Virus record (IMG/VR): IMGVR_UViG_3300047548_001106
Location: 1 to 32,913 of that record
Reading direction: 5' to 3' (one strand)
Length of the DNA stretch: 32,913 bases
From: a virus
Shown here: piece after piece, positions 1,600 to 20,549 of the stretch
Layout of the letters: the number at the start of each line of letters is the position of its first letter
Position numbering within the stretch: position 1 is the first letter of the stretch
Made by a program: the position numbers and the translations under genes
The notes under the pieces: generated by a model
Databases searched by the model: none
Seen by the model: the letters and a program-made list of their open reading frames with translations, nothing else
Told to the model about the DNA's origin: nothing

Positions 1600-1612
1600 G
1601 CGATTCCTTGAA

Positions 1613-1632: not shown

Positions 1633-1652
1633 TTGCTATTTTCCCAAAATAA

Positions 1653-1691: not shown

Positions 1692-1729
1692 AGATTTTGC
1701 CCATTGCCACTCATTCAAGGAGATTTCAC

Positions 1730-1867: not shown

Positions 1868-1875
1868 GCGCAGCC

Positions 1876-2160: not shown

Positions 2161-2178
2161 CCACCAACCGAGAAACAC

Positions 2179-2568
2179 ATGACAGACCTTTCCATTGAGC
2201 AAGACATTCAAGCCGCCGGTGCCAATAAGTACCCGCGCATCACCCCTGCCGACATCGAGGCAAACATTGCCGACGAGTATTACATCAACGCTGGGGATGC
2301 CACTCTTTCTGAAATGCGGAATGTAGGCATTGACGGTAGCCACCCGCTTGATTTGCTGACATTTTGTGTGTTGGTGCTGCGCAACGGGTTCACTGTGACT
2401 GGTGAGTCGGCTTGCGCAAGTCCTGAAAACTTCAACGAAGAAATCGGCCGAAAAATTGCGCGTCAAAACGCCATTCAAAAAATTTGGCCGCTCATGGGCT
2501 ATGAGCTTCGCAGTCGGCTTGATGAAGCCTCTCGCAAAGACGCTTGCATTCGTGCTTGCGAAGGTTGA
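2179..2568 (+). CDS. Phage Gp49-like protein
   Basis: A 129-aa protein with the signature of the phage Gp49 family: EYYINAGDA near residue 35, then HPLDLLTFCVLVLRNGFTVT and ESACASPENFNEEIGRKIAR, ending in a helical tail (IWPLMGYELRSRL). The family is common in the early regions of proteobacterial temperate phages and its biochemical role is unknown to me. Family assignment is from recalled sequence pattern. Confidence 0.8.
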   Translation: MTDLSIEQDIQAAGANKYPRITPADIEANIADEYYINAGDATLSEMRNVGIDGSHPLDLLTFCVLVLRNGFTVTGESACASPENFNEEIGRKIARQNAIQKIWPLMGYELRSRLDEASRKDACIRACEG

Positions 2569-2591
2569 TCCACAAACGAAAGACAAAACCC

Positions 2592-2942
2592 ATGAAAGCC
2601 TTTTCCGTTTTTCTTCAAGACCTGAATCTGGGTCAAACCCACTCACTACTGACGCAAGACCTGCACGACCTGTTGCAGACCGTCAAAAGCACCGGGCGCA
2701 GTGGCACCCTGACCGTCAAGATCAAAGTTTCAGCGGCCACCCGTGGCGGTGACGTTGACAAGGTGACCATTGCCGCCGATCGCAAATTGGAGCTGCCCAA
2801 GCCAGAGCAGCCCACTGACTTTTTCTGGCTCACGGATGACGCCGAGCCGACCCGCCAGCACCCACGCCAGCACGACCTGGACTTGCGTGACGCCAAGACC
2901 CCTGCCGAAACACCGCTGGCCGCGCTCAAGCAAGCCAGTTGA
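2592..2942 (+). CDS. Hypothetical protein, partner of the DUF2303 gene
   Basis: A 116-aa protein starting MKAFSVFLQDLNLGQTHSLL. Residues 15-65 have a mixed alpha/beta pattern (HDLLQTVKSTGRSGTLTVKI...KVTIAADRK), followed by a charged C-terminal half (PEQPTDFFWLTDDAEPTRQHP). Small proteins of this appearance often sit just upstream of DUF2303 genes in phages, as here. Function unknown. Confidence 0.6.
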   Translation: MKAFSVFLQDLNLGQTHSLLTQDLHDLLQTVKSTGRSGTLTVKIKVSAATRGGDVDKVTIAADRKLELPKPEQPTDFFWLTDDAEPTRQHPRQHDLDLRDAKTPAETPLAALKQAS

Positions 2943-2992
2943 TCGGCCATTGCCTCTTTTTCATTTCCCACCAACCTCCCGCAAAACACACC

Positions 2993-3838
2993 ATGACCAA
3001 CGAAATCACCATGCAAGACACGCCCGAGCTGTTCGACATTGCGCAGCACCTCATGAACCAAGCGGCTGCCGCGCTCAAGCCCGAGCAAGTGGCACACGCC
3101 ACCTTTGTGACCGTGCCGCCCGGTTACAGCCACAAGGATGTGACGGAGCTGGTGCGCAAGGCCGCACCCATGCCGCACCGCAAGCAAGGCGTTATCGAGC
3201 TTGCCAGCGTGGACAGCTTCATCACCTTTTGCAAAGAGCAGCAACGCGAGGCAACGGGTTATATCTACGCCAACCCGGACACGCTCACCATGACTGCCGT
3301 GTTCAACGACAACCGCTCAGCCGATGCGGGATGGCGTGACCATCAGGCCAAGTTCCAGGCCAAGTTCACGCCCGAATTTCAGCGCTGGCTGGAAAACAAC
3401 GGGCACAGCCGCGCCAAAGGCCAGACCGAGTTTGCCGAGTTCATTGAAGACAACTTGGCCGACATCACCGAGCCAGCCGCGCAGCAGTTGCTGGAAGTTG
3501 CCAGCACCATCCAGGCCAAGACCGACATCAATTTCAGCAGCGCCAAGCGCCTGCATGACGGCCAGGTGCAACTGGGCTACACCGAGACCATCAATGCCAG
3601 TGCCGGTGCCAATGGTGCGCTCCAAATCCCCAAAGAATTCGCGCTGGGCTTGCGCATCTTCAAAAACGGTGACGGCTACAAGCTCCGCGCCCGCCTGAAA
3701 TACCGACTGGGCAACGGCCAGGTCAAGTTCTGGTATGAGCTGGATCGACCCGAGCGAGCCGTGGAGGACGCTTTTGCCGGGTATGTGGATGCCGTGTCTG
3801 AGCGCAGCGGCTATGTGGTGTTGCTGGGCAATGCGTGA
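2993..3838 (+). CDS. DUF2303 (YfdQ-like) phage protein
   Basis: A 281-aa protein. It contains HRKQGVIELASVDSFITFCK near residues 60-80, then DNRSADAGWRDHQAKFQ, QTEFAEFIEDNLADI and a C-terminal region with KFWYELDRPERAVEDAF, the conserved order of the DUF2303/YfdQ family of lambdoid and related phages. The family is found in early gene clusters and its molecular role is unknown. The start at 2993 was chosen because homologues begin close to this Met. Confidence 0.8.
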   Translation: MTNEITMQDTPELFDIAQHLMNQAAAALKPEQVAHATFVTVPPGYSHKDVTELVRKAAPMPHRKQGVIELASVDSFITFCKEQQREATGYIYANPDTLTMTAVFNDNRSADAGWRDHQAKFQAKFTPEFQRWLENNGHSRAKGQTEFAEFIEDNLADITEPAAQQLLEVASTIQAKTDINFSSAKRLHDGQVQLGYTETINASAGANGALQIPKEFALGLRIFKNGDGYKLRARLKYRLGNGQVKFWYELDRPERAVEDAFAGYVDAVSERSGYVVLLGNA

Positions 3839-3845
3839 GGCTGCA

Positions 3846-4151
3846 ATGACCAAGCCAAAGACACCGCAAAAAGTCCAGAGTGCACCCCTGTTGCTGGAGC
3901 AGGCCAGGGGCCACATGGAGGCCCGCGCATCGACCTATGACCAGCCAGGGGGTGAGCGCTCCATGGGCAAGGCCGTGGCGGCATTCAACGCCATCACGGG
4001 CCGTGCGCTGGCCGAGTCTGAGGGTTGGTTGCTGTTGCAGTTGCTCAAGGATGTGCGTCTGTTCCAGCGACCCGGCTACCACGCCGACAGCGCCGAGGAT
4101 TGCATTGCCTATGCAGCCCTCAAGGCCGAGGCCAAGGGGATGGGCCGATGA
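3846..4151 (+). CDS. DUF6378-like phage protein
   Basis: A 101-aa protein. The core (RASTYDQPGGERSMGKAVAA, then LLLQLLKDVRLFQRPGYHAD and DSAEDCIAYAALKAE) resembles the DUF6378 family, all-alpha proteins that look distantly like MazG-type folds. Starts 7 nt after the DUF2303 gene ends. Its stop overlaps the next start (ATGA). Function unknown; a nucleotide-metabolism link is only suggested by the nearby dUTPase. Confidence 0.6.
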   Translation: MTKPKTPQKVQSAPLLLEQARGHMEARASTYDQPGGERSMGKAVAAFNAITGRALAESEGWLLLQLLKDVRLFQRPGYHADSAEDCIAYAALKAEAKGMGR

Positions 4152-4630
4152 CGCGCATGACCGATTCGCATGGCGGCTTGCATGTCAAGGTGTCCGCGCA
4201 GCGCAAGAGTGACAGCCTGCGAAGCCGTGTGGAGGCCGAGTTGCTGAAAGCCTATGAGCCGATCAGCGCGGAGCGCATCGCCACCCTGTTGCATGATCCA
4301 TCCATTTCGGTGGCAAGTGCCATCCAGGCGCTGGTGAGCCAGCAACGCGCCTACCGTGCCAGCCGCCGTGGTCGCACCAGCTTTTACCTGTGGGGCCGTG
4401 ACCCGAGCGCATCCGTTGGCAAGGTCAAGGCCCGCGCGGGATCTGATGCCGATGTGATGAAGCGCCCGACCTATGACGGGCGTGAATTGCGCCGCCTGCC
4501 GATCCCTGAGGGCCGGTACCGGGCGTATGAGTTGCCCAGCTTGGTCAATGGCAAGCCGGTACCGCCGCGCGGCATTCATGCCCAGTGCGTTGGCCTGCCT
4601 TTCAAGCACGACCTGACGCGAGGCACCTGA
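4148..4630 (+). CDS. Hypothetical protein, possibly with a winged helix
   Basis: A 160-aa protein. Residues about 20-80 (RSRVEAELLKAYEPISAERI...ISVASAIQALVSQQRAYRAS) look like a winged-helix domain with a wing ending in FYLWG. The C-terminal part has no recognised domain. ATGA overlap with the gene before and a one-base TGATG overlap with the gene after suggest translational coupling. DNA binding is an inference. Confidence 0.55.
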   Translation: MTRMTDSHGGLHVKVSAQRKSDSLRSRVEAELLKAYEPISAERIATLLHDPSISVASAIQALVSQQRAYRASRRGRTSFYLWGRDPSASVGKVKARAGSDADVMKRPTYDGRELRRLPIPEGRYRAYELPSLVNGKPVPPRGIHAQCVGLPFKHDLTRGT

Positions 4631-5172
4631 TGCGCAAGCAATCGGCCTATGCACGAAAGCGCAGCCGCATGGATGCGCCCTGCACCTACAGCATATTGAC
4701 CGAGCTGTCGGCCAGCCCGACCCAGCCCATGGCGCTGCATCGCCGCTCTTACCAGCTCACGCGCATGTGGCAGGGGCTCACGGCCATTGAACGTGCGCCA
4801 GAGCCCAGCAAGGACGATTGGCGCGTTTGCAGTGATGCGGTGAACCTCATGGAAACGCTGATCACATCGAATGGCGGGCTTTGGCCTGACTGCGATGGCG
4901 ATTTGGTGCACATCCAGGACGCGCAAGGCTTGCTGCAAGACGCCATCGCGGCACTGGCAATGGCTGGAAAACGCAACCTCAGTGGCGGAAACATCCGACT
5001 TGATGCACGGGGCATTGTGGCCGTTCGCGGCATCTTGGAGGACTACCAGACGATTTTGGAAACGCTGCCAGAGCGCACCCTGATTCGGGCGCACCGGCTC
5101 ACCGAAATCCGCATCAAAGAAATCCTGCGCGGCAAGACCCAGCCGCACGACATTGAAATCATCGACCTTTGA
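4630..5172 (+). CDS. Hypothetical helical phage protein
   Basis: A 180-aa protein, mostly helical, with an N-terminal basic segment (MRKQSAYARKRSRMDAPCTY). It resembles by eye the uncharacterised early proteins of beta- and gammaproteobacterial phages that follow DUF2303 clusters, but I do not recognise a named family. Start chosen from the TGATG overlap. Confidence 0.6.
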   Translation: MRKQSAYARKRSRMDAPCTYSILTELSASPTQPMALHRRSYQLTRMWQGLTAIERAPEPSKDDWRVCSDAVNLMETLITSNGGLWPDCDGDLVHIQDAQGLLQDAIAALAMAGKRNLSGGNIRLDARGIVAVRGILEDYQTILETLPERTLIRAHRLTEIRIKEILRGKTQPHDIEIIDL

Positions 5173-5177
5173 CCATC

Positions 5178-5633
5178 ATGTTTCTGAAAACCCAAAAAAC
5201 CCACCCTGATGCAGTGCTGCCGGTCTACGGATCGGGAGGCGCTGGCTGCTTTGACCTGATCGCTGTTGAAGTCAATGGCGGCAAAGATGCTGTCAACGTA
5301 CTGAGCGGTGCGCCAGTGCTTTGCAACATCGGCCTTGCCTTTGAAATTCCAGTGGGCCATGTGATGCTGATTTTTTCGCGCAGCGGCCATGGCTTCAAAA
5401 ATGCCGTGCGTTTGAGCAACTGTGTTGGCGTCATTGACAGCGACTACCGTGGCACCGTCCAGGTCAAGCTGACCATGGACGCCAGCGCCGAATACCGCCC
5501 CATGCAGATCAAGCCCGGTGACCGTGTGGCGCAAGCCATGATCGTGCCCAGCCCTTACGTGCACTTTGAGTTGGCCGAGAAACTTGGTGAGACCGAGCGC
5601 GGTGATGGAGGCTTTGGGAGTACGGGCGCATGA
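5178..5633 (+). CDS. dut: dUTPase (dUTP diphosphatase), trimeric type
   Basis: A 151-aa protein with all five motifs of trimeric dUTPases in order: AGCFDLIA (1), FSRSGHGFKN (2), GVIDSDYRG with the catalytic Asp (3), KPGDRVAQAMI (4), and the glycine-rich RGDGGFGSTG at the C-terminus (5). The enzyme hydrolyses dUTP to dUMP and diphosphate, keeping uracil out of DNA and feeding dTMP synthesis. Motif 2 has Ser in place of the usual Pro (PRSG), a tolerated variant. A TTG 9 nt upstream is an alternative start. Stop overlaps the next start by ATGA. Confidence 0.93.
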   Translation: MFLKTQKTHPDAVLPVYGSGGAGCFDLIAVEVNGGKDAVNVLSGAPVLCNIGLAFEIPVGHVMLIFSRSGHGFKNAVRLSNCVGVIDSDYRGTVQVKLTMDASAEYRPMQIKPGDRVAQAMIVPSPYVHFELAEKLGETERGDGGFGSTGA

Positions 5634-5734
5634 ATACTTGGCCCTTCCCAGCTTTTCCGCTGCCACCCTACAAAGAGCCACGCAAATCGCGCATGCCGCT
5701 CTACCCGGTGGATGCCGAGGAGTCGCCGCTATGA
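5630..5734 (+). CDS. 34-aa micro-ORF coupled to dUTPase
   Basis: ATG at 5630 overlaps the dUTPase stop (ATGA), and its own TGA at 5732-5734 overlaps the next ATG in the same way. The peptide (MNTWPFPAFPLPPYKEPRKS then RMPLYPVDAEESPL) is proline-rich with no domain. The perfect fit between two genes by double ATGA overlap is the main evidence that it is translated, at least to keep ribosomes running through the operon. Confidence 0.55.
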   Translation: MNTWPFPAFPLPPYKEPRKSRMPLYPVDAEESPL

Positions 5735-5970
5735 CCAGCCACACCCTGATCGTTTGCAAGGGCGTGAATGCTGATGGCAGCGAGTGCGCAAAGGCCGAAG
5801 AATGCGCCCATTTCAGCGCATTTGGCATCGACCACAAGACGCTGAATTTGTGTGAGCAGATCGGTGAGCCCATGCACTTTTTCAAGCCTTGGCGTGACAT
5901 GGTGCGTGAAGGCGGTTTTTTGTCCATCAAGTTCATCCAGGCCACGCCGCAAATGGAGTTGCTGCCATGA
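5731..5970 (+). CDS. Hypothetical small Cys-containing protein
   Basis: A 79-aa protein starting MTSHTLIVCKGVNADGSECA. It carries four cysteines at about residues 9, 19, 25 and 42, the first three spaced like a small metal-binding knuckle. No family recognised. ATGA overlaps on both sides. Confidence 0.55.
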   Translation: MTSHTLIVCKGVNADGSECAKAEECAHFSAFGIDHKTLNLCEQIGEPMHFFKPWRDMVREGGFLSIKFIQATPQMELLP

Positions 5971-6350
5971 GCGACTGGAGCTGCTGCAACCCTGTTGGCA
6001 AATGTGAGCGCGGCCTTGGCTGCCCAGCGGGTGGCGCTTGCCATTCCATGCCTGGATGCGCTGACACGCTTTGCCCAGGCCATCCGGGATCAGCAAGGGT
6101 TGCCAGGGTCAAGCGCAGTTACCCGAAAAAAGCGCCCATGCTGGCCGCAACGTCACGCATCTACATCAAGCATCTTGCGCGGGCAATGCTGTTGTTTGTG
6201 CTGGTTGCAATGGCCTGCGCCGCCGCCGTTTCGATGATCTCGCGATACCCACCGAAAACCGATTGCACCAAGTTGATGGGCATGTGGAATGGCAACCCAC
6301 CTGCTTATCTGGTTTTGAAGTGCAAGGGCGCTGCGGAGGCCAAGCCATGA
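5967..6350 (+). CDS. Cys-rich N-terminus plus transmembrane segment
   Basis: A 127-aa protein. The first 40 residues hold eight cysteines (CCNPVGKCERGLGCPAGGAC then CADTLC), a basic linker follows, and one hydrophobic helix at about residues 72-90 (ARAMLLFVLVAMACAAAVSM). Topology suggests a metal-binding N-terminal part anchored to the inner membrane. No family recognised. Confidence 0.5.
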   Translation: MSDWSCCNPVGKCERGLGCPAGGACHSMPGCADTLCPGHPGSARVARVKRSYPKKAPMLAATSRIYIKHLARAMLLFVLVAMACAAAVSMISRYPPKTDCTKLMGMWNGNPPAYLVLKCKGAAEAKP

Positions 6351-6529
6351 CGCCAATGCCAGCCGCATACAACCGATGCAGGCCGGCGCAGCCATCCGAG
6401 CGCTGCCGCAACTGCAAGCGGTGGCTCGACCATCCAGAGCAGACCACCTGGAATGTTGTCCCCGTGGTCAACGTCCAAAACCACCAGAGCAAGGCATGTG
6501 TGCACATGCCGATTTCAAGGATGCAATGA
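6347..6529 (+). CDS. 60-aa protein with CxxC-like cysteines
   Basis: Starts MTPMPAAYNRCRPAQPSERC, then RNCKRWLDHPEQTT. Cysteines at about 11, 20, 23 and 51 could bind zinc, as in many tiny phage zinc-finger proteins. Chosen start is the ATG overlapping the previous stop. Function unknown. Confidence 0.5.
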   Translation: MTPMPAAYNRCRPAQPSERCRNCKRWLDHPEQTTWNVVPVVNVQNHQSKACVHMPISRMQ

Positions 6530-6530
6530 C

Positions 6531-6752
6531 ATGAGCGAAATCAAGACATTCCAGACACGCAAGCCAACCTGCCCACACTGCGGGCACGGCATGACCGACG
6601 ATGAAATGCTGCAAGACCCCGGCGACCTGTACCGGCTGCCATGGCTTGAGGGTACCGGCTCAACCGAGTGCCCGCATTGCGAACAAACCTATTTCGTGCA
6701 AGGCGGTTACATCCCGCACTACACCAGCGCAAAAACGGAGGTGGAGCTATGA
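6531..6752 (+). CDS. Small zinc-ribbon protein
   Basis: A 73-aa protein with two CPHC knuckles (TCPHCGHGMTDDEM at about 14-27 and ECPHCEQTYFVQGG at about 46-59), a clear zinc ribbon. Such small phage ribbons may bind nucleic acid or a host protein; no specific family recognised. ATGA overlap with the following gene. Confidence 0.65.
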   Translation: MSEIKTFQTRKPTCPHCGHGMTDDEMLQDPGDLYRLPWLEGTGSTECPHCEQTYFVQGGYIPHYTSAKTEVEL

Positions 6753-6973
6753 GCATGCAATCACTCAGACCCGATGTGTACGCCGCCATTTGCTTTGCCC
6801 TTTGGCATCACCAGGGCGGCAATTCACCCGTGGGCCAGCCGCTGCGTCCAATGCTTGGTCTGGGGCAACACGACCACATGACGCCAGACCAGCTTGAAGC
6901 CGCCAAGCGTTTGGCAAAAGCCATTGAAACCATTGATTTGACCGTTGGAATTACGACAGGAGAAACCGCATGA
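6749..6973 (+). CDS. Hypothetical 74-aa protein
   Basis: Starts MSMQSLRPDVYAAICFALWH. A central segment (HHQGGNSPVGQPLRPMLGLG) precedes a helix (LEAAKRLAKAIETID). It resembles by eye small phage proteins of unknown function. Held between two ATGA overlaps. Confidence 0.55.
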   Translation: MSMQSLRPDVYAAICFALWHHQGGNSPVGQPLRPMLGLGQHDHMTPDQLEAAKRLAKAIETIDLTVGITTGETA

Positions 6974-7362
6974 GCAACAAACACGACCCATACGCCAGTG
7001 AAGAAGAATCGCTGGCCGTGCTGCAAAAAGACACGCGCACCAGTGCTGAAAAGCGCCTGGATCAATTGCTTGAAGAGCGTTGGGCCAACGAGCAAGGCGT
7101 GGAGCTTGAGGGTAAATACAACATCCTGCGCCAGATCGCGCTGGAGCTGTTGGAGCAACGCAAGCCGCCACGGTTCCCGGAAGAGTCCAAGCAATTCAAG
7201 GAGTGGTATGACGAATGGTGGCTGGGTGACGGCCAGCAAGGCGAAATCATCCCCGGCAGCGCTGATGCCGACTTTCCCAAATACCTTGATGGCTACACGC
7301 TGGCTTTCGGCGCATGGATGGCGGCAAAACATGCTGCGAATGAATTGAAGGGGCAAGCATGA
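6970..7362 (+). CDS. Hypothetical acidic protein
   Basis: A 130-aa, Glu-rich, mainly helical protein starting MSNKHDPYASEEESLAVLQK. The C-terminal half (YDEWWLGDGQQGEII then LDGYTLAFGAWMAAK) ends in the FGAWMAAK pattern seen in many phage proteins of unknown role. ATGA overlaps on both sides. Confidence 0.6.
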   Translation: MSNKHDPYASEEESLAVLQKDTRTSAEKRLDQLLEERWANEQGVELEGKYNILRQIALELLEQRKPPRFPEESKQFKEWYDEWWLGDGQQGEIIPGSADADFPKYLDGYTLAFGAWMAAKHAANELKGQA

Positions 7363-7793
7363 ATGCCGATGAGTTGAAACTGATTTTGGACACCGTGAAA
7401 TCGGTGGCCGACACCGCTGGCATTGCTGGCATCACTTGGATTTGCATCCACTACCTGACCATTGCCATTGGACACATTGCCGTCCCGTTTGCGTGGGCGG
7501 GTGGGTTGATCATGGTGGCCCGCTATCTTTCAAAAGTTTTGATTGAGTCCGAGCGAAGAAAAGGTGATGTCAAGCAACTCGCTAGCGCAGATGAAATTGA
7601 AAAAACAAAACGGGCGGGCATTGAGTTGCAAAAAACAGTGCAGGAAACAGAGCTGGCAAAGGTCAAAGCGCAGCTTGCAGACCAGACTGTGCAGCTCCGA
7701 TCCATTGCCGCAGCCGCTGGCATCAAGTATTCCCAGTGGTCTGGCCTCATGAGCAGTGAGCTGGAAAAAATCATCGACAAGGTGAAGTCATGA
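7359..7793 (+). CDS. Membrane-anchored coiled-coil protein
   Basis: A 144-aa protein. Residues about 15-65 hold one or two hydrophobic helices (AGIAGITWICIHYLTIAIGH then FAWAGGLIMVARYL). Residues about 75-125 form a charged heptad-like helix (ADEIEKTKRAGIELQKTVQE then TELAKVKAQLADQTVQLRS). Likely an inner-membrane protein with a cytoplasmic coiled coil. No family recognised; a superinfection-exclusion role is possible but unsupported. Confidence 0.55.
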   Translation: MNADELKLILDTVKSVADTAGIAGITWICIHYLTIAIGHIAVPFAWAGGLIMVARYLSKVLIESERRKGDVKQLASADEIEKTKRAGIELQKTVQETELAKVKAQLADQTVQLRSIAAAAGIKYSQWSGLMSSELEKIIDKVKS

Positions 7794-8080
7794 ACGTCAT
7801 TGATTTTTGTGAAGCTCCGCGCACCATGGCCGAGGTTTTGAATGCAGGATTCACCCGCGACCAGATTTACAACAACGTCAAGCATGGAAAGCTGGTCAAC
7901 CTGACGCGCCGTGACGCATGGGGCCGCACAACACACAACAGGCCAGGTTTGTTTCAGGCCGCTGAAAACTGGGATGGCGGCCTGGAAGGCCACAACTTCA
8001 ACGGGCGTGAGCGACTTGGCGGCCAGGTGCAACACTTTGACGCCAAGCCTTTGGTTGCTGCATGGGGGGCATTGTCATGA
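7790..8080 (+). CDS. Hypothetical protein with possible HTH
   Basis: A 96-aa protein. Residues 10-42 (RTMAEVLNAGFTRDQIYNNV then KHGKLVNLTRR) look like a winged helix-turn-helix, and the rest (NRPGLFQAAENW...) is polar. It directly precedes the PrtN-like gene with an ATGA overlap, so it may be a co-regulator. Inference only. Confidence 0.5.
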   Translation: MNVIDFCEAPRTMAEVLNAGFTRDQIYNNVKHGKLVNLTRRDAWGRTTHNRPGLFQAAENWDGGLEGHNFNGRERLGGQVQHFDAKPLVAAWGALS

Positions 8081-8343
8081 ACACAGCTTTTTTGCTCATG
8101 GCCCAGTACAACGCCAAGGCAGTCATCCCGGTTGATGTGGTTTGCAAAGACTATTTCCCCCACCTGGACAGCACCAAATTTGTCCGCAAGGTAAGCGCCG
8201 GTGAAATCAAAATTCCACTGGTGAGGATTGAAGGCTCACAAAAATGCGCCAAGGGCGTGCACCTGCAAGACTTGGCCGACTATCTCGACAGGCGAAGGGA
8301 AGCGGCCATCAAGGAATGCGATCAGCTCAGTCGCTCAAATTGA
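8077..8343 (+). CDS. PrtN-like pyocin activator family protein
   Basis: An 88-aa protein starting MNTAFLLMAQYNAKAVIPVD, with DYFPHLDSTKFVRKVSAGEI and RIEGSQKCAKGVHLQDLADY. This is the recognisable pattern of the pyocin activator PrtN family. In Pseudomonas, PrtN activates pyocin genes by binding P-boxes. Phage members are small DNA-binding proteins usually found at the integration end of the prophage, as here beside attP. Its target in this phage is not evident. Confidence 0.85.
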   Translation: MNTAFLLMAQYNAKAVIPVDVVCKDYFPHLDSTKFVRKVSAGEIKIPLVRIEGSQKCAKGVHLQDLADYLDRRREAAIKECDQLSRSN

Positions 8344-8353
8344 GGAATCTACA

Positions 8354-8593
8354 ATGCAGACCATGGACACCCAGCAAACAGACAGCACGGCGGCAAAAAT
8401 GCACATGAAGGTCAGCCCAAAAGGCATGACCTATGTGTGCTTTGTCACGTATCGGCCCATTGACCAGATTGAAGACCTGGACGCCTATGCCGAGAAACAG
8501 GCCCGTGCAAGTTTTGTCTATGAGTCTGATGCGCAGTGGTTTTGCAGGCAATTCAATGAGGCGGTAGCTCGAAAGGTAGAGCCGTTCATTTGA
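8354..8593 (+). CDS. Hypothetical 79-aa protein running into the tRNA-like element
   Basis: Starts MQTMDTQQTDSTAAKMHMKV with an upstream GAGGAATCTACA (GAGGA ribosome binding site). Predicted alpha/beta core (MTYVCFVTYRPIDQIEDLDA). Its last 12 codons overlap the 5' half of the tRNA-like sequence, and its TGA stop lies in the anticodon loop. If attP recombination occurs here the C-terminus would change on integration. Function unknown. Confidence 0.55.
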   Translation: MQTMDTQQTDSTAAKMHMKVSPKGMTYVCFVTYRPIDQIEDLDAYAEKQARASFVYESDAQWFCRQFNEAVARKVEPFI

Positions 8594-8632
8594 ACGAGTG
8601 GTGCAGGGTTCGAGTCCCTGCCCGCCTCACCA
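8558..8632 (+). other. tRNA-like element, candidate attP core
   Basis: 75 nt fold as a tRNA. The acceptor GAGGCGG/CCGCCTC has 7 perfect pairs, followed by A and an encoded CCA. The D-arm is GCTC/GAGC with GGTA in the loop. The T-arm is GCAGGG/CCCTGC around the canonical TTCGAGT loop. The anticodon arm CGTTC/GAACG (8583-8587, 8592-8596) closes only a 4-nt loop (ATTT), so no functional 7-nt anticodon loop exists. Phage integrases commonly use tRNA 3' ends as attachment sites, and this lies just before the integrase. The 3' half is probably the host tRNA match, with the 5' half supplied by phage. I could not assign the host tRNA. Confidence 0.6.
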
Positions 8633-8657
8633 AAAACGGCCCATTTCGGGCCGTTTT
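8633..8657 (+). terminator. Rho-independent terminator
   Basis: AAAACGGCCC and GGGCCGTTTT pair around the 5-nt loop ATTTC, giving a GC-rich stem flanked by A-run and T-run. It directly follows the CCA of the tRNA-like element and should end the accessory operon transcript. In part it may be the terminator of the host tRNA gene captured in the att site. Symmetry would also allow it to work on the opposite strand. Confidence 0.8.
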
Positions 8658-8660
8658 CTA

Positions 8661-8713
8661 TTGGACAAAGTGCGTCCAATCACATTGACAACTTCAGAGG
8701 CCTGCGGGCTACT
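8661..8713 (+). promoter_or_regulatory. Inverted repeat and possible integrase promoter
   Basis: TTGGAC and GTCCAA (8661-8679) form a 6-bp inverted repeat. Just after it a perfect -35 TTGACA (8685-8690) is followed at 17 bp by GCTACT (8708-8713), a poor -10. This would give an integrase transcript with a leader of about 260 nt. The assignment is tentative because the -10 is weak. Confidence 0.35.
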
Positions 8714-8971
8714 GGTGCAACATTCGGTGCAACATAAAGCGCCATATATGCTCTATGTCATTGATGCAAAATGAGTTTTTTGGATTCATCGCATCAGTCC
8801 ATCATCGGCGCAACCGACAAACGCCACATCGTTGATTTCAAAGGATTTTCAGGAAAATCAACGACTTGCGCGGGATTTTTGTCTGTCTCGTTTGCTGTCA
8901 TTCAATGCGTTTTTGGTCTATTTGGTGCAACGGTGCTACATTTCGGTGCTACAAATTTCAGATGTTGCACC
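8714..8971. repeat. Six GGTGCAAC/GGTGCTAC repeats, likely integrase arm sites
   Basis: Direct copies GGTGCAAC at 8714, 8726 and 8924, GGTGCTAC at 8932 and 8945, and an inverted GTTGCACC at 8964-8971. Several are embedded in a longer form, (C)ATT(T)CGGTGCWACA. Short repeated sites in two clusters between the core att site and the integrase start are the expected layout of arm-type binding sites and of integrase autoregulation. Together with the terminator and tRNA-like element they occupy the 384-bp gap 8594-8977, which holds no convincing gene. Confidence 0.6.
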
Positions 8972-11918: not shown

Positions 11919-12170
11919 TTATTCTCGAAAAGGCTCCGGATCGTCGCGCCACTCTGGGATTTCAGGATGTTGCGCATCCGGGAAATCTTCGCGCACAAAT
12001 CCAAATTTTTCGATGGTTGAAACATCTTCAATAACAGTCCATTGTTTTGCTGCGTTGTCTTTCTCAATTCTGAAAATACTTCCTTCAAGCATCTTCACGA
12101 ATTGGTAATGCTTTTCCGTGTCTGCAATTGCGTCGAGGTCTTCGCGCGAGTTAATGGCATTTGATTCCAT
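11919..12170 (-). CDS. Small acidic protein downstream of the DGR reverse transcriptase
   Basis: An 83-aa protein starting MESNAINSREDLDAIADTEK, with GGAG upstream. Its start overlaps the end of the reverse transcriptase gene by 20 bp. The core (HYQFVKMLEGSIFRIEKDNA then KQWTVIEDVSTIEKFGF) is alpha/beta. Proteins like this occur after tail-fibre genes in some phages and may be a tail-fibre assembly helper or a DGR-linked protein. Unproven. Confidence 0.55.
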   Translation of the reverse strand: MESNAINSREDLDAIADTEKHYQFVKMLEGSIFRIEKDNAAKQWTVIEDVSTIEKFGFVREDFPDAQHPEIPEWRDDPEPFRE

Positions 12171-13137
12171 ACGTTGACTCCAGGTGATTGAATAAATTGC
12201 ATGTGTCGGCGTGTGATGCGTGTCCACGCCATGAGGCTAGAAATTTATTGAGTGATTCATCGTCATTAAGCTTGATGTATTTTTGAATTTTTCTCTTTGC
12301 TGTCGTGACAGATTGCTTTCTCATGAGTTTGTGTCTCGGCCAAATCCTGTACCCGAGAAAATTTATTCCGCGAGTGACGGGAGATATTTGCCATTTACTC
12401 ATTCGCAATCCAAGCTTCTCAATACTGAATTGCTCGATGTCTTCAAACCAGTTGCGAAGCTCATACGGATTGCTTGACAAAATCACAATGTCATCCATGT
12501 AGCGCGTCCACTCTTTTGCGCCAAGCTTGAAATGGATGAATCGGTCAACCTCTCCGCCATAGACGTTGGCAAATAGCTGGCTTGTCAGGCTGCCAATGGG
12601 CAGTCCCTTGCCTTGAGCTGGAACCATGGCTTCAATGAGTTTCAGTGTTTGGTGGCAACTGATTTTTTTCCTGATCAGGCGGTGAAGAATTTCCCGGTCA
12701 ACGCTTGGAAAAAATTTGCTGTAGTCCGTTTTGAGAAAATGGGTTGCACCCGTGCGCCGCAAGCCAGCTTGCACATGCCTGACGCCGGCATGCGTTCCCA
12801 TTCCTGACCGGCATGCAAATGTGCCAGGCATGAGCGTTTTTTCAAATATCGGGCCGATCACATTGACCAGCGCATGCTGGACAACACGATCCTTGAATTC
12901 AAGCGCATGAATGCTTCGCGGCTTTGGTTCATAAACAATGAATTCTCTAAATCCACCCTGACGCCAATTGCCGTCAATGATTTCTGACCGAAGGCGCTCA
13001 AGATTCAGCTCGGCATATTCCTTGAATTCAAGATAGCCCCATGTCATGCGCTTGCCGGACGATGTTTTGTGGAGCGCATCGCGCAGATTGTCAATATCCG
13101 CGACGCCCTCTATCAGGCGTTTGTACTTTTTACCCAT
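12151..13137 (-). CDS. brt: DGR reverse transcriptase (Brt-like)
   Basis: A 328-aa retroelement-type reverse transcriptase, the same length as I recall for BPP-1 Brt. RT motifs are FLKTDYSKFFPS with catalytic Asp (about 138), LPIGSLTSQLFANVYG (180-194), and RYMDDIVIL (212-220) with the catalytic YMDD, then RGINFLGYRIWP. The IGxxxSQ form of motif 4, in place of QGxxxSP of group II introns, is diagnostic of DGR enzymes. No maturase or endonuclease domain is present. The enzyme copies TR RNA to cDNA with errors at adenines, probably complexed with Avd. It lies directly downstream of the TR and its spacer. Confidence 0.96.
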   Translation of the reverse strand: MGKKYKRLIEGVADIDNLRDALHKTSSGKRMTWGYLEFKEYAELNLERLRSEIIDGNWRQGGFREFIVYEPKPRSIHALEFKDRVVQHALVNVIGPIFEKTLMPGTFACRSGMGTHAGVRHVQAGLRRTGATHFLKTDYSKFFPSVDREILHRLIRKKISCHQTLKLIEAMVPAQGKGLPIGSLTSQLFANVYGGEVDRFIHFKLGAKEWTRYMDDIVILSSNPYELRNWFEDIEQFSIEKLGLRMSKWQISPVTRGINFLGYRIWPRHKLMRKQSVTTAKRKIQKYIKLNDDESLNKFLASWRGHASHADTCNLFNHLESTYGIKCH

Positions 13138-13313
13138 GCAAGCACCCCACGAAGCCGGACACGACTTTCACACACGGTTTCCCGTGGCTACTCGTCGTTT
13201 TTCCGAACCCCCAAAGGTGTTTGCCGAAGCGGGACAGCAAGGCTGACCACATGGAAAATGGTCTGCCCATCATGCCGTGACAATGATGGAGCGATCCAAC
13301 AAAGTTCCAGTCC
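13138..13313 (-). ncRNA. TR RNA 3' spacer with stem-loops (TR to brt)
   Basis: 176 bp between the TR and the reverse transcriptase contain two inverted repeats that would fold in the sense RNA. One is CCATCAT/ATGATGG with a 9-nt loop (13267-13289). The other is CACGG/CCGTG closed by a GAAA tetraloop (13173-13186). In BPP-1 the RNA downstream of TR is needed as a structured primer/binding region for cDNA synthesis; the same role is inferred here. An open reading frame crosses it but is not considered a gene. Confidence 0.65.
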
Positions 13314-13432
13314 TCACAGACGCCGCGAGCCCCGATGTTGTTGTTCGAGTTCGTAGGGGAGTTGTTCCAGTTCGAGCAACGCGAACCGGAGTTCGACGTT
13401 TCATCCCAGTTGCCCCCAAAGATCACGGCGTT
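13314..13432 (-). repeat. DGR template repeat (TR), 119 bp
   Basis: Aligns without gaps to the VR at 13862-13980 (constant offset 548). 107 positions are identical and 12 differ. Every difference is an adenine in the sense (minus) strand TR: plus-strand T at 13338, 13341, 13345, 13350, 13351, 13365, 13366, 13372, 13392, 13399, 13404 and 13410. The TR is rich in AAC codons when read in the VR frame (NNSPTNSNNNIGARG), the usual design that lets adenine mutation reach many residues while avoiding stops. It begins one base after the avd stop codon. Confidence 0.97.
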
Positions 13433-13433
13433 A

Positions 13434-13814
13434 TTACCCATGCTGCCCCCTGCGCTTTTGTTTTCCGATCCATGCCCCAAGGATTTTTCCGACTTCGGCC
13501 AACAATGCTTGCGCAGTCTTGACCTGATGAGGGGTAATGCCCTTGACGCTTTCACTCGACAAAAACCGCAGCCAAAACCGCAGATGCGACATGCCAGCAT
13601 CCGCGATGTAGAGGCGAGAAACCTGAGTTGACTTCCCTGCCTCCACAAACAGTTGAACCTGACCCATGAGGCACTGAATGAACATGTCGCGCACAACCCC
13701 ATGCTTTCTTGGCAAGTTTTGAGCAATGGGATACAGGTATGAAATCACGGTCTCATACTTCTCGACCACGGCCATGGGCTCATAGGTCTGTGTGCTGTCA
13801 AGTTCTGGTGTCAT
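13434..13814 (-). CDS. avd: DGR accessory variability determinant (Avd)
   Basis: A 126-aa all-helical protein closely resembling BPP-1 Avd as I recall it: VEKYETVISYLYPIAQNLPR, KHGVVRDMF, AGKSTQVSRLYIADAG, LRFWLRFL and QVKTAQALLAEVGKILGAWI. Avd forms a basic pentameric barrel that binds the reverse transcriptase and nucleic acid and is needed for retrohoming. The C-terminal GKQKRRGQHG is basic, as expected. It sits between the variable gene and the TR, the canonical BPP-1 order. No strong ribosome binding site is visible before its ATG. Confidence 0.94.
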   Translation of the reverse strand: MTPELDSTQTYEPMAVVEKYETVISYLYPIAQNLPRKHGVVRDMFIQCLMGQVQLFVEAGKSTQVSRLYIADAGMSHLRFWLRFLSSESVKGITPHQVKTAQALLAEVGKILGAWIGKQKRRGQHG

Positions 13815-13826
13815 TGGTCAGGTGCC

Positions 13827-13842
13827 GGCGGCTGTCGCCGCC
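13827..13842 (-). promoter_or_regulatory. Hairpin directly after the variable gene (DGR target element)
   Basis: Directly abutting the TAA stop of the mtd-like gene, GGCGGC and GCCGCC pair around a GACA tetraloop in the sense strand. BPP-1-type DGRs carry a short hairpin/cruciform just downstream of the VR that boosts retrohoming to the VR and is absent after the TR. Position, stem and GRNA-like loop fit that element. Confidence 0.75.
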
Positions 13843-15342
13843 TTAATCAAGAATCAGGTGGTCACAGACGCCGCGAGCCCCGATGCTGGTGTACGAGACC
13901 GTAGGGGAGTTGACCCAGTCCGAGCAACGCGAACCGGAGCTCGACGCTTCAACCCAGGTGCCCCCAAAGATCACGGCGTTCTCCATTTGATACGTGCTGC
14001 CACGCCCGCCCGTGTTGGCTGTCCATCCAGCAGCGGCTGCGCCGCCGCCGAATTCATCGCCCCAAATCCACATGCATCCGGACGACTGGGCCATGCCCCA
14101 TTTGCTGATGTATGTGGCATTCCATGTGGTGGAACCGGGGTCTGAGCCTATGGAAGATGCTTCGGTTGTCCCAAAGGCCAGTGCAGCAAATTCGGAATAT
14201 GTTGGCGCTCGCTTGCCATGGCTGCGCAGCACCTCCAAGGCCTCCCACCAATTCAGTGAGCCATAGGCATTGGATCCGTTGCCGCCAAATTTCGTTGGAA
14301 TCTTTGGTGGGCTTGAGCCATCAGCAATGGTGACGTTGTATTTGCTGGTGCCGTTTGTCAGATGATCAACGCCAAGCAGGTAAATATCAGACCAAAAGCC
14401 ATCGGCCACAAGAGCCATGCCGCGCGGGTCTGGGCAGGCCGGACGGAACTTCAAATCCCACATCGAATAGGCGTTGATTTGCGGAGTGCTGTTGCCGCCT
14501 CCAGACGATCCGGAGTGGCCGCCAGGCGCGTAATGGAAGCCACCAATCTTGCGCGACCCCGTGACAGGCGGAGATGTAAAGCTTGATGTGGCCTGGATTG
14601 AGGAATCCGGATTGACCCAGATTGCATAGTCATTGCCGGCCGTGAGGGTCGGCATTGTGATGGCTGTATCTGATGCAAATGCGATAAGCTTTCCACCGAC
14701 ATCAACCAATGTGCCAGCTTTGATGCTTGCCGTCCCATTGCCTGTTTTTGTGAATGCCACCGCGCTCGGATCTAACTTGATAAAAATTCCAAGTGTTGAT
14801 GGCAAGACTGGAAATGAACCGAATGTCTTGACGCCTGTAATTGTCTGATTTCCGCTGGTGACGACAACATCGGCCCCAAGTTTTGAACCAGTTGCAGCGC
14901 CTGCGCCGAGTTTGTCCGCCGTAACGGCTGCATTCGCCAGCTTTTGGGTTGTGACAATGCCATCCTGCAATGACTCAGCCCAGTCAGCGGATACACCCGG
15001 TTGGCTGGTTGCCACGTTTGCCAGGTTGTTGAGCAAAATCCAGAATTTTCCGCTGTGCAAAACGGAAGCCGGTTTGTTGAGTGCGCCAGAAAGTGTGTTC
15101 CAGTAACCCTTGAAGTTTGCGGCATCAAGTGCAGCCTCTGAGGCTATTTGTGTTTCCTCAAGACTGACGGCGGCCTTGGCTGCACTGACCGCTGCTGCGG
15201 CTTGTTTTGCATTGACATCGGCTTGCAATGCGTTGGCCTCCGTTGCAAATGTTGGCAATGCAGCCATGAATGCATCGGCCCGAGTTGCAAAATTTGCCGG
15301 GTCAGTTCGTGTGGGTGGTGTTGGCAGTGGAGTAATTGACAT
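13843..15342 (-). CDS. mtd: Mtd-like DGR-diversified receptor-binding tail protein
   Basis: A 499-aa protein. Residues 1-80 are an Ala/Glu-rich tail-attachment helix region, and 78-125 resemble tail-fibre segments (GYWNTLSGALNKPASVLHSG). From about residue 187 on it closely resembles BPP-1 Mtd as I recall it: AVAFTKTGNGTASIKAGTLV, DYAIWVNPD, KIGGFHYAPGG, YSMWDLKFRPACPDPRGMAL, YLLGVDHLTNGTSKYNVTIA. It ends in a C-type-lectin fold with the variable region at residues 455-494. In BPP-1 this protein binds the bacterial receptor. It is longer than BPP-1 Mtd (about 381 aa) because the N-terminal part is different. The start overlaps the preceding stop (TAATG). Confidence 0.95.
   Translation of the reverse strand: MSITPLPTPPTRTDPANFATRADAFMAALPTFATEANALQADVNAKQAAAAVSAAKAAVSLEETQIASEAALDAANFKGYWNTLSGALNKPASVLHSGKFWILLNNLANVATSQPGVSADWAESLQDGIVTTQKLANAAVTADKLGAGAATGSKLGADVVVTSGNQTITGVKTFGSFPVLPSTLGIFIKLDPSAVAFTKTGNGTASIKAGTLVDVGGKLIAFASDTAITMPTLTAGNDYAIWVNPDSSIQATSSFTSPPVTGSRKIGGFHYAPGGHSGSSGGGNSTPQINAYSMWDLKFRPACPDPRGMALVADGFWSDIYLLGVDHLTNGTSKYNVTIADGSSPPKIPTKFGGNGSNAYGSLNWWEALEVLRSHGKRAPTYSEFAALAFGTTEASSIGSDPGSTTWNATYISKWGMAQSSGCMWIWGDEFGGGAAAAGWTANTGGRGSTYQMENAVIFGGTWVEASSSGSRCSDWVNSPTVSYTSIGARGVCDHLILD
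13862..13980 (-). repeat. DGR variable repeat (VR) with IMH-like 3' end
   Basis: The last 119 bp before the C-terminal tail of the mtd-like gene. Relative to the TR the encoded changes are N to T, D to V, T to A, N to S, N to D, N to V, N to V, N to Y, N to T and N to S, while the scaffold (FGG, SGSRCS, NSPT, IGARGVC) is unchanged. At the sense 3' end a GC-rich block (CGGGGCTCGCGGCG, 13869-13882) followed by TCTGTGA corresponds to the initiation-of-mutagenic-homing element of BPP-1. Homology to TR stops at 13862. Confidence 0.95.
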
Positions 15343-16256: not shown

Positions 16257-19200
16257 TTATGCGGCTGCAACGGTTTGCATGGCATCACCGTCTTGAGTAA
16301 CGCGCTCCCACAGGCGCTGCGATTTGCCGGTGTTGACTGCGGTGGCCCTTGCTTCGGCCCGGAGATCGGCGACTTCGGCTCGGAGCGTGCCCAGCTCTTG
16401 CACCATGGCAGCCAAGTAAATCGATTGATCGGCTGTGCCTTGTTGGCTGTAAATGAAGCTTGGCAGCGCACGGACACCCAGAGCACCATCGGCCATGCGC
16501 TCAAGTGGCATGACCGCCTCAGGCCCAGCCTCACCCATGACGCCAAGTTGGCCGCCATTGAACATGAACGGCGTTGGTGTGTTGTAGATGCCTTGACCGC
16601 CAAAGACACCGCCCGATGCAAAGCCGAAGAAGCTCAGCACCTTGCCAATGAGGCCGCCGCCGCCACTTGACTGGTTGACCACCACCGGATTAGCTGCTGT
16701 TTTAGCGGTAGAAGCGTCGATGTTTCTCAGGTAATCACGAATTGGTGCCAGGTAGTCCAGTGCAGATGCGGTGTTTTTTGACACGGCCATGAGGCCGTCA
16801 TTGTTCATAAACACGAGTGCTTCAATTTGCTTTGCCGAAGCCTTCAGGGCGTCGGCAGTGTTGTCCATGGTTCCGCTGCTGTAGCTGCCAACCGTGTCAA
16901 CCGCCGAATTCACAAGCTCCAACGCGCTGAGTTGCCCATCTCCATTGAGGTCAACGGACTGAATTAGTTTTGAGATTTGCTCATCGGTTGCAATTCCTTT
17001 TAGCCCTTTTGACAACTCATCAAATGTCAGTAGGCCATCGACATTTGAATCAAGTCTGCTAAATTCTTTGACGGTGGTTCGCGCAAGTGTGTAAACCTCC
17101 GAGCTGATGCTTTCGCCAACCAATCCGATTGTTTCCCGGATCGACAGGAGGGCGTCCAGCGTTTCTTGCTGGTAGCCCTTGACGGCTGGCAGCCCGGAAA
17201 CCTCTGCGCTGACCTGCGCGACGATGGCCGCAAATTGCGCACCGCTGGTGGCCTGATTTTTGGCCGCTGCAATGTACTGATCGGCCATGCCCGTGATCGA
17301 GCCCAGGGCAGACTGATCATTGGCCCGTGCCAGATTCAATGTTTGCAGGTACTGTGTCCGCGCGGCAGACATCGACACCGAAGGTGAGCTGGTGCTGATC
17401 TTGAGCGCGGTGAGCCATTCGCTGATGCTCTTGCCGCTGGCCCGCAAGGCGTTGATTTTGGCTTCGGCCTCTTTTTGGGCGGCATCGGCGGTTGCCATGG
17501 CAGCCTTGGTGACCTCTGAAAATGCCGGTGCCAATTGCAGCAACACGGCATATTGCTGCCTGCCAACTTCGGTGTTGAGGTCTTGGGCGTCCACAAGGGC
17601 TTTGTAGGCATCCAACGTGCGAGGTAAGGCCGTGCCACCAAACGCCTGAGAAAACGCCTTGGTGAGCTGTTCCTGTGTCTTTGCCAGCCGCTCTTCCTGT
17701 GTGTAGATCGACTGGTAGTAAGCCGTGGTGAGCGTGGAAAACGCCTCTGTGCCGCCGACCAGATCGAGCAGCTTGCTTGCCGCATCAGCGCCCACGGCGC
17801 TGGTTGCCAAAAGGCTCTGGTTGAGGGTGCCAAGCACCTGATTGACCGCCATCAGGCTATTGCCAAGGCGGGCCAGGGTGACGGAGGCCAATTCGCCATC
17901 TTTGGCAAACATTGCAAGCGTTGCGCCATAGGCCGTTTGGGCCATGGCATCGCCAAAGCCCGTGATGGCCGCTGCAATCGCTTTTTCTTTGGCCGCATCG
18001 TCCAGGCCTTTGAGGCTGATGCTGATCGACTTGGAGAACCCGTTGACCGCATCGGCGCTCAGGCCGATGGCGCTGGCATAAGCCCGAGTGGCTGCGGTGG
18101 TCATGCCGACAGCGCCGTTGAGGAATTTTCCAAGCTCCGCATTGATGGCCGCATAGTCGGTACCGGATTTGTCGGATCGGAACCATCCGCCCTCTTGGTA
18201 CCAGCGGCTGTATTGGCTCAAATTGGCCCCTGAGGCCGTGAACTGGCCCGACAAGCCGTAATCCTGCGTTTCCTTGGCTCCCATGCCAAATGCACGGTTG
18301 ACCAGGCCGCCAATGGCACCGCCGATAGCCGCACCAATGGGGCCAGCAATGACAGCGCCAATGGCCGTGCCCGTGACGGTGGCAATGTTCTTGTTTCCGA
18401 ATGCTGCGTATTGGCCGCTGATGGCCGTGCCAATGCCGTACCCGGCCAAAGCGCCACCGGCATACGATGCCGCAGTGCCCAGTGCGCCCGCCGAAGACAT
18501 GAGCGAAGAGCCTGCCTGATTCAAAACGCCCGTGGTGTTGTTGACCAGCCAAGCGCCAATGTCCTGCGCAGCAAATGCCACCTTGTCGCCCAGCATGGCG
18601 AAACCACCGACGATGTTGTCGTACACGCTTTTGATGGTGCCGATCATGCCCAGCGAAGACCCGGAGACACCGGCTGCCTGTGCGCCAGACGCGCCAAAAG
18701 CGGAGGCCATGCCAGCGCCAAGCGGGCTGATGATGGCCTGAATCACGGGCCGCAAAATCATGGTCTTGAACATGTTGACGATGGTGTCGCGCATGTTTTT
18801 GGCGAAATCCTTGCCGGACTCAAAGCCGCGCATCAGCGCGTCCACGATGCTGTCGTTGATCTTGTTGGCTGTGCGCTCCCATTCATCGGCAGCTTTTTTG
18901 GCGGCTTTTTCGTTGGCGTCCAGCACCTCGCCATCTTTCATGGCCTTGATCAGACGTTTTTGCGCGTCAATGCGCGACTCCAGCGCCTTCACATAGCCAG
19001 GAATGACGTTTTCGGTGGCCTCAAGCGCGGCCAACTGGTTTTCCATTTCGGCCAACGTCAATTCGGCCAGAGCTGATTTTCCTTGGCCGTAGGTGGCGTT
19101 TGCCATTTCCTGAGATTTGGCCTGCGCTTCAATGGCATCCACCTGTTTCCAGGCTTCACCCAAAGTCTTAGCCATTTCGTCATTGATTTGTTTTTCCAGC

Positions 19201-20549
19201 TTGGCCCGATCCTCAGCCGCTTTTTTCATGAACGGCTGTTGTTCCAGCAGAAGGCGCTGCGCATCGGTCAACTGGTCAACCGTCAGCTTGCCCGCTTTGT
19301 AGGCGGCATTGAGGCTGTTCCATTTTTCAAGGAAATCACCCGACAAACCGCTGTCCACCTGCGTCAAGCTGGAATAGAGCTTTGCGCCGCTGTCGGCCAG
19401 CTTGGCTGCCTCTTCGGCCAGCTTTTGCGCAGCCTTGGCCGCTGCCTCTTGCGCCTTGATATCCAGCTTGGAGGCATCCAACACAGGTTTTGCGGCTTCG
19501 GCCACCTTGGCCGTGGCCTCAATCTCTTTCATCCTGTCGCGCAGCCGCTGACCCAGCATCTTGTCATCAAACATGGTGGTCACCTCTGACCACCCGTTGG
19601 AAAACGCTTTGCCAGCCCGCATGAAGTTGCCTTGGGCCATTTCGTATGCGCCCAGGGCCAGGGTGCTGAGCGTGGTGATCAGCACACCAAACACCCGGAT
19701 CAGGAATTGCGCACCATCGGCCACATAGCTCAGGCCAATGATGGCCGACTGCGTCCAGCGGGCAATGGTGCCGTCTTTGCTGAGTTTGGCAATTTCATCG
19801 CGGACGCCGCCGCTGCCATTCATCACATCCAGGAAAGCTTGAGTTGCCAGGTCAAGCGCGGGCACCATGCCCATGCTCACTTGTTTTTGCCATGCCTCAC
19901 TGGTGGCTTTTGCGCGGGTCAGGTTATCGGTGAAGTTGTCCGCAGCCTCAGCCTGTGCTGTGGTGGTTTTGGCTTGAATCTCACCGGCCAGCGCCAGGTC
20001 TTTCATCATGGGCAGCAGCTTTGCTCCCTCTTTGCCAAAAATCGCCATGGACACGGCAGCTTTGCTTGCGCCGTCCTGGTATTCGCCCAGGGTGCGGGCC
20101 AGCAGCATGAATTGCTCATCCGGGGCCAATTTCTGGAATTCGCGCACATCCAGGCCCATAGCCTGCAATGCAAAACCAGCGCCCTTGCCTTCCTCTGTCA
20201 CGCTGGTGAGTGAGCGCGTCATGCGGTTCATGGCCGCAGCGATGCTCTCAGCGTTTTGTCCGCTGTATTTGCCGACAGCGGCCAAGCCGCTCAAAGATTC
20301 AACAGTCACTCCCGCCTGGATTGCCAGATCATTGAGTGCAGCAGCGCTTTCGATGCTGCCCATGACCATGTTTTTTGCCCAATTGACGGACATGCCAATG
20401 CCCAGCAGTCCAAGGGCTTTGGTGGCGATGCCAGCGGCCAGCTCAATGCGCTTGGACATGCTTTGCGCCATTTGCTCGACCTCAGCGAATTTACGCTGCA
20501 CATCGGCAATGTCGGCCATGAGTTTGATGTTGACGGCACCGGCCTGCAT
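16257..20549 (-). CDS. Tail tape measure protein
   Basis: A 1430-aa protein, the largest in the window. It starts MQAGAVNIKLMADIADVQRK and has long helical regions, Gly/Ala-rich membrane-like stretches (about 690-760) and a lambda gpH-like C-terminus (GGQLGVMGEAGPEAVMPLER). It sets tail length and is ejected during infection; tails near 200 nm would be expected at about 0.15 nm per residue. Residues about 1163-1210 hold two canonical EF-hand loops (DSNVDGLLTFDE and DLNGDGQLSALE), unusual for this family. A second reading frame shadows it but has no gene features. Confidence 0.93.
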   Translation of the reverse strand: MQAGAVNIKLMADIADVQRKFAEVEQMAQSMSKRIELAAGIATKALGLLGIGMSVNWAKNMVMGSIESAAALNDLAIQAGVTVESLSGLAAVGKYSGQNAESIAAAMNRMTRSLTSVTEEGKGAGFALQAMGLDVREFQKLAPDEQFMLLARTLGEYQDGASKAAVSMAIFGKEGAKLLPMMKDLALAGEIQAKTTTAQAEAADNFTDNLTRAKATSEAWQKQVSMGMVPALDLATQAFLDVMNGSGGVRDEIAKLSKDGTIARWTQSAIIGLSYVADGAQFLIRVFGVLITTLSTLALGAYEMAQGNFMRAGKAFSNGWSEVTTMFDDKMLGQRLRDRMKEIEATAKVAEAAKPVLDASKLDIKAQEAAAKAAQKLAEEAAKLADSGAKLYSSLTQVDSGLSGDFLEKWNSLNAAYKAGKLTVDQLTDAQRLLLEQQPFMKKAAEDRAKLEKQINDEMAKTLGEAWKQVDAIEAQAKSQEMANATYGQGKSALAELTLAEMENQLAALEATENVIPGYVKALESRIDAQKRLIKAMKDGEVLDANEKAAKKAADEWERTANKINDSIVDALMRGFESGKDFAKNMRDTIVNMFKTMILRPVIQAIISPLGAGMASAFGASGAQAAGVSGSSLGMIGTIKSVYDNIVGGFAMLGDKVAFAAQDIGAWLVNNTTGVLNQAGSSLMSSAGALGTAASYAGGALAGYGIGTAISGQYAAFGNKNIATVTGTAIGAVIAGPIGAAIGGAIGGLVNRAFGMGAKETQDYGLSGQFTASGANLSQYSRWYQEGGWFRSDKSGTDYAAINAELGKFLNGAVGMTTAATRAYASAIGLSADAVNGFSKSISISLKGLDDAAKEKAIAAAITGFGDAMAQTAYGATLAMFAKDGELASVTLARLGNSLMAVNQVLGTLNQSLLATSAVGADAASKLLDLVGGTEAFSTLTTAYYQSIYTQEERLAKTQEQLTKAFSQAFGGTALPRTLDAYKALVDAQDLNTEVGRQQYAVLLQLAPAFSEVTKAAMATADAAQKEAEAKINALRASGKSISEWLTALKISTSSPSVSMSAARTQYLQTLNLARANDQSALGSITGMADQYIAAAKNQATSGAQFAAIVAQVSAEVSGLPAVKGYQQETLDALLSIRETIGLVGESISSEVYTLARTTVKEFSRLDSNVDGLLTFDELSKGLKGIATDEQISKLIQSVDLNGDGQLSALELVNSAVDTVGSYSSGTMDNTADALKASAKQIEALVFMNNDGLMAVSKNTASALDYLAPIRDYLRNIDASTAKTAANPVVVNQSSGGGGLIGKVLSFFGFASGGVFGGQGIYNTPTPFMFNGGQLGVMGEAGPEAVMPLERMADGALGVRALPSFIYSQQGTADQSIYLAAMVQELGTLRAEVADLRAEARATAVNTGKSQRLWERVTQDGDAMQTVAAA

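What the first reader, a model, noticed from the sequence alone, without database searches (positions are those of the whole stretch)
12151..15342. Complete, active-looking BPP-1-type diversity-generating retroelement
All parts are present in order: Mtd-like variable gene, VR, post-VR hairpin, Avd, TR, structured spacer and reverse transcriptase with YMDD and IGxxxSQ motifs. TR and VR (119 bp, offset 548) differ at 12 sites, and all 12 are sense-strand adenines of the TR; 0 of the 91 non-adenines differ. About 12 of 28 adenines changed. Chance cannot explain this, so mutagenic retrohoming has occurred in this lineage.
Basis: partly seen in the sequence, partly recalled or inferred. Interest (0 to 1): 0.95.

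Follow-up and report, generated by a model that had tools for sequence, protein, structure and literature searches.

The report
Phage receptor-binding-protein diversity-generating retroelement
A temperate bacterial virus carries a complete cassette that copies a template through an error-prone reverse transcriptase to rewrite the tip of its receptor-binding protein; it is a good new example of a well-known system (Bordetella phage BPP-1), and relatives show it has worked in nature.

Summary
On the minus strand, in order: Mtd-like variable gene, VR, GRNA-loop hairpin, Avd, TR, structured spacer RNA and reverse transcriptase. TR and VR (119 bp, offset 548) differ at 12 sites, all TR adenines (12 of 28 A, 0 of 91 others; P=3e-9). 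RT, Avd and the Mtd domain match solved BPP-1 proteins (E=8e-136, 2e-50, 1e-121), and the spacer hits Rfam Phage_DGR. It is a bona fide BPP-1-type DGR.

A related viral contig has an identical TR but a VR differing at 19 sites, 18 at TR adenines. Two closer relatives (96% identical over 4.2 kb, TR identical) have VRs differing at 17 sites, all adenines. The system has worked repeatedly in nature.

Differences from BPP-1: the Mtd head is fused to an unrelated 157-residue N-terminus in a phage with long-tail genes, and the hairpin stem is 6 bp, not 8. The window is a nearly complete temperate phage genome; a relative is integrated in a MAG titled Bordetella.

A side observation deserves checking: across 149 TR/VR pairs the rare non-adenine changes are mostly T→G (30 of 57). 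The cassette is a new member of a known kind.

The parts
13843..15342 (-). Variable gene (499 aa): residues 158-499 are a homologue of BPP-1 Mtd; residues 1-157 are an unrelated tail-attachment-like N-terminus
   Evidence: PDB 1yu4 E=1.4e-121 over 158-499; Pfam mtd_2nd, phrog_11262; N-terminus matches other phages only over a short stretch
13862..13980 (-). VR, variable repeat; codons 455 to 494 of the variable gene
13827..13842 (-). Post-VR hairpin, 6-bp stem with GACA (GRNA) loop, 19 nt after VR
   Evidence: compensatory pair change in L004
13434..13814 (-). Avd accessory protein, 126 aa; its stop abuts TR
   Evidence: PDB 4dwl (Bbp7) E=1.6e-50; Pfam bAvd
13314..13432 (-). TR, template repeat, 28 adenines, 24 of them in AAC or AA-rich codons
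13154..13292 (-). Structured spacer RNA, Rfam RF03022 Phage_DGR
   Evidence: 102.1 bits, E=4e-17
12151..13137 (-). DGR reverse transcriptase, 328 aa, YMDD and IGSLTSQ motifs intact
   Evidence: PDB 8ub7 full length E=8e-136; alignment

Best explanation
This is a complete BPP-1-type diversity-generating retroelement between the tail and lysis genes of a temperate, long-tailed phage. The avd-TR-spacer transcript is copied by the RT-Avd complex, which misreads adenines. The mutagenised cDNA replaces VR at the end of the Mtd-like gene, anchored by the shared 3' sequence and the adjacent hairpin. Each copying event gives the receptor-binding protein a new C-type-lectin tip, probably changing which bacterial surface structure is bound. 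Shown here: the anatomy, adenine-confined TR-to-VR difference, and repeated VR replacement among relatives that share a TR. Inferred from homology with BPP-1: priming, homing, and the effect on host recognition.
For: 12/12 differences at TR adenines. RT, Avd and Mtd domain homologous to solved BPP-1 proteins. Rfam Phage_DGR spacer. GRNA hairpin, with a compensatory stem change in L004. L004: TR identical to the window, VR different at 19 sites, 18 at TR-A. L080 and L003: TR identical, 96% identical over 4,248 nt outside VR, VR different at 17 sites, all at TR-A. Where the TR of L080 and L003 differs from the window (positions 78-79, TA to CG), their VRs carry the same CG, as TR-to-VR copying predicts. 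In 54 pairs 742/766 differences are at adenines.
Against: No read-level or experimental evidence for this contig. The hairpin stem is 6 bp, while published phage DGR hairpins are 7-10 bp and shortening the BPP-1 stem by 2 bp lowers activity (PMC3240598); however 6-bp stems are the commonest form among relatives found here. L004 has one non-adenine VR change.
Confidence: 0.97

Rival explanations
1. The cassette is a decayed or dormant DGR: VR was diversified in the past but the element no longer homes.
For: The hairpin stem is shorter than the published range; no reads show ongoing change.
Against: All frames and catalytic motifs are intact; the TR-RT spacer RNA is conserved; at non-adenine positions TR and VR are still identical over 91 sites, although third positions in flanking genes differ by about 40% between the window and its nearest relatives, so VR must have been refreshed from TR recently.
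Confidence: 0.05
2. The pair is an ordinary gene-fragment duplication whose copies diverged by point mutation.
For: Two 90% identical repeats 548 bp apart.
Against: Adenine-only differences, P=3e-9; RT, Avd and DGR RNA adjacent; the same pattern in over 50 relatives.
Confidence: 0.005

Closest known systems
Bordetella phage BPP-1 DGR (mtd, avd/bbp7, TR, brt; AY029185)
   Same: Same gene order and strand, similar VR-TR offset (556 and 548), VR at the 3' end of the receptor-binding gene, Avd stop abutting TR, nearly letter-identical 3' VR sequence, GRNA hairpin, RT 328 aa in both and 61% identical, Mtd domain homologous over 342 aa.
   Different: Here the Mtd head sits on an unrelated longer N-terminus (499 against 381 aa); the phage has a 1430-aa tape measure and a major tail protein, while BPP-1 is a short-tailed podovirus (general knowledge); hairpin stem 6 bp and loop GACA instead of 8 bp and GAAA; cassette DNA only 65% identical.
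Viral DGR clades catalogued from metagenomes by Roux et al. 2021 (PMC8144416)
   Same: Tail-protein targets, strong adenine bias, widespread activity in viral DGRs.
   Different: Whether this exact element is in that catalogue could not be checked here.

Membership tests
Diversity-generating retroelement (DGR) | Reverse transcriptase of the DGR clade with the [IVL]GxxxSQ motif | tested here: met
   IGSLTSQ and YMDD present and invariant residues kept; full-length match to bRT 8ub7
Diversity-generating retroelement (DGR) | TR/VR pair with differences confined to TR adenines | tested here: met
   12/12; relatives 742/766
Diversity-generating retroelement (DGR) | VR inside the coding sequence of a C-type-lectin-type target | tested here: met
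   VR begins at codon 455 of a homologue of Mtd; the lectin fold is taken from the solved homologue, not modelled here
BPP-1-type DGR | Avd accessory protein between target gene and TR | tested here: met
BPP-1-type DGR | Structured spacer RNA between TR and RT | tested here: met
   Rfam RF03022, 102 bits against a cut-off of 50
BPP-1-type DGR | Hairpin after VR: GC-rich stem of 7-10 bp, 4-nt GRNA loop, 4-34 nt from VR (PMC3240598) | tested here: inconclusive
   Loop GACA and distance 19 nt fit; the stem is 6 bp, just under the published range
BPP-1-type DGR | VR replaced in nature while TR stays constant | tested here: met
   Window against L004, and L080 against L003
BPP-1-type DGR | RT-dependent mutagenic homing and tropism switching | not testable with these tools
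   needs a laboratory assay

The most novel reading that the evidence does not exclude
DGR reverse transcriptases have a weak second specificity: besides misreading adenine they occasionally put cytosine opposite template U, giving T-to-G changes in VR at about 1% of T sites. In 149 unique TR/VR pairs related to this one, 30 of 57 non-adenine changes are T to G, against 4 T to C and 2 T to A. In 25 of the 30 the TR carries the commoner base of its family, so VR is the changed copy. The bias exceeds that of flanking genes (binomial P about 7e-8 counting distinct contexts only).
Probability: 0.45. Interest if true: 0.45.

Novelty: new member of a known kind. Interest (0 to 1): 0.32.

Why it matters
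It is a clean, intact BPP-1-type cassette in a different phage background, with natural same-TR/different-VR comparisons that show the machine working outside Bordetella phage. It shows the Mtd head, Avd, template RNA and RT behaving as a module that can be joined to another tail attachment domain. The pooled relatives offer a test of how strict adenine specificity is.

Tried and rejected
Simple duplication with point mutation: rejected by adenine confinement. Second VR elsewhere in the record: a search of the whole 32,913-base record with TR finds only TR and the one VR. Recent exchange of TR between phages as the cause of its 98-100% conservation (third positions of flanking genes only 56-69% identical): not decided; Avd and spacer are also more conserved than RT, so constraint remains possible. 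Template slippage as the cause of T-to-G: the neighbouring template bases in the commonest context (AACTCC) would give T to C, so slippage does not explain it (inference). Exact att core: only short shared stretches found, left open. Host of the MAG relative beyond its record title: not pursued. Literature on non-adenine DGR changes: DiGReF (PMC3521204) looked for C-, G- or T-specific repeats, not for rare off-target changes; PMC12875486 reports cytosine as the favourite error opposite adenine in vivo; none of the passages read reports T to G.

Full report
OBSERVATION. The 119-bp repeat pair at 13314-13432 and 13862-13980 is found without prior assumption. On the minus strand the two copies differ at 12 positions, all adenines in the TR copy (12 of 28), none at the 91 other positions (P = 3e-9). 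All 12 lie in codon positions 1 and 2, chiefly of AAC codons, and change 10 residues of the encoded protein.

COMPONENTS. The RT (328 aa) aligns end to end with the BPP-1 RT of known structure (8ub7, E=8e-136) and keeps YMDD and IGSLTSQ. The 126-aa protein is Avd (4dwl, E=2e-50; Pfam bAvd). Residues 158-499 of the variable protein align with Mtd (1yu4, E=1e-121) right to the C-terminal GARGVCDHLIL. The spacer between TR and RT is a full-length hit to Rfam RF03022 Phage_DGR. After VR comes GGCGGC-GACA-GCCGCC; the loop fits the published GRNA rule and the distance of 19 nt fits the published 4-34 nt, while the stem of 6 bp is just under the published 7-10 bp (PMC3240598). In L004 the stem is GGTGGC-GACA-GCCACC, a compensatory change, so the stem is maintained. 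In most relatives a stem of 5-9 bp with a GRNA loop follows VR; in about a quarter the simple scan found none.

ACTIVITY IN NATURE. Three close relatives were found: L004 (a 35.5-kb viral contig), L003 (a 4.4-kb viral contig) and L080 (a MAG contig). L004 has exactly the window's TR; its VR differs from the window's at 19 sites, 18 of them TR adenines, the other a synonymous T/C at position 78. L080 and L003 share a TR, are 96% identical over 4,248 nt outside VR, and differ in VR at 17 sites, all TR adenines. At TR positions 78-79 L080 and L003 both read CG where the window reads TA, and their VRs follow their own TR. This is what repeated copying of TR into VR predicts. Across 54 pairs 742 of 766 differences are at adenines. 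The window's own VR still matches TR at every non-adenine site although third codon positions of flanking genes differ by about 40% from the nearest relatives, so VR was refreshed recently on that scale (inference).

CONTEXT. The record is a viral contig of 32,913 bases. It has terminase, portal, capsid, head closure, a major tail protein, a 1430-aa tape measure, primase, dUTPase and an integrase, so it is a temperate phage with long-tail genes; a sheath gene was not seen among the ORFs tested, so a siphovirus is likely but morphology is inferred. The related prophage in the MAG is collinear but circularly permuted: window 8804-32913 then 1-8808 maps onto one continuous stretch, with only about 25 bases missing between the window's ends. 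So the window is a nearly complete genome and integration occurs just upstream of the integrase. The MAG record is titled Bordetella parapertussis; that label was not verified. BPP-1 itself is a podovirus (general knowledge), so the same Mtd-DGR module serves a different phage type, joined to a different N-terminus whose short matches lie in other phages' tail fibres.

SIDE RESULT. In 149 unique TR/VR pairs there are 1,678 changes at A and 57 elsewhere; of the 57, 30 are T to G, against 4 T to C and 2 T to A. In 25 of 30 the TR has the family's commoner base. Flanking genes do not show this bias (P about 7e-8 on distinct contexts). It may be a weak second error of the RT (C opposite U); cytosine is also the favourite wrong base opposite A in vivo (PMC12875486), and A to G is the commonest change here (783 of 1,678). 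Selection is a live alternative, since one context (TCC to GCC, serine to alanine) recurs, and related loci are not independent.

VERDICT. A real, intact, naturally active BPP-1-type DGR. Shown: anatomy, adenine specificity, VR turnover with constant TR. Inferred: molecular steps and effect on host recognition. Novelty is that of a new member of a known kind, in a new phage background.

Noticed in passing
Pooled relatives (149 TR/VR pairs), e.g. L007, L015, L020, L027, L028, L043: Rare non-adenine TR-to-VR changes are mostly T to G (30 of 57), recurrent in AAC[T]CCGGT; possible weak second specificity of the RT or selection.
   Followed up: partly
13314-13432 compared with L004, L080, L003: TR is 98-100% identical to its nearest relatives while third codon positions of RT and the variable gene are only 56-59% identical; stronger conservation than its template role obviously needs.
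   Followed up: partly
about 8804-8840: The collinear prophage in the MAG (L080 contig) begins and ends here, just upstream of the integrase: the likely phage attachment site. Short shared stretches only (ACATCGTTGATTT), core not defined.
   Followed up: partly
1 and 32913: The window's ends join in two relatives with about 25 bases between them, so the record is a nearly complete, circularly permuted phage genome.
   Followed up: yes
16257-20549: The tape-measure protein carries a pair of EF-hand calcium-binding motifs at residues 1163-1213 (Pfam EF-hand_7).
   Followed up: no
LR745707-LR745709 (phages collection): Engineered T7 records with a chimaeric fibre joining T7 gp17 to BPP-1 Mtd turn up as DNA matches to the variable gene.
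   Followed up: no
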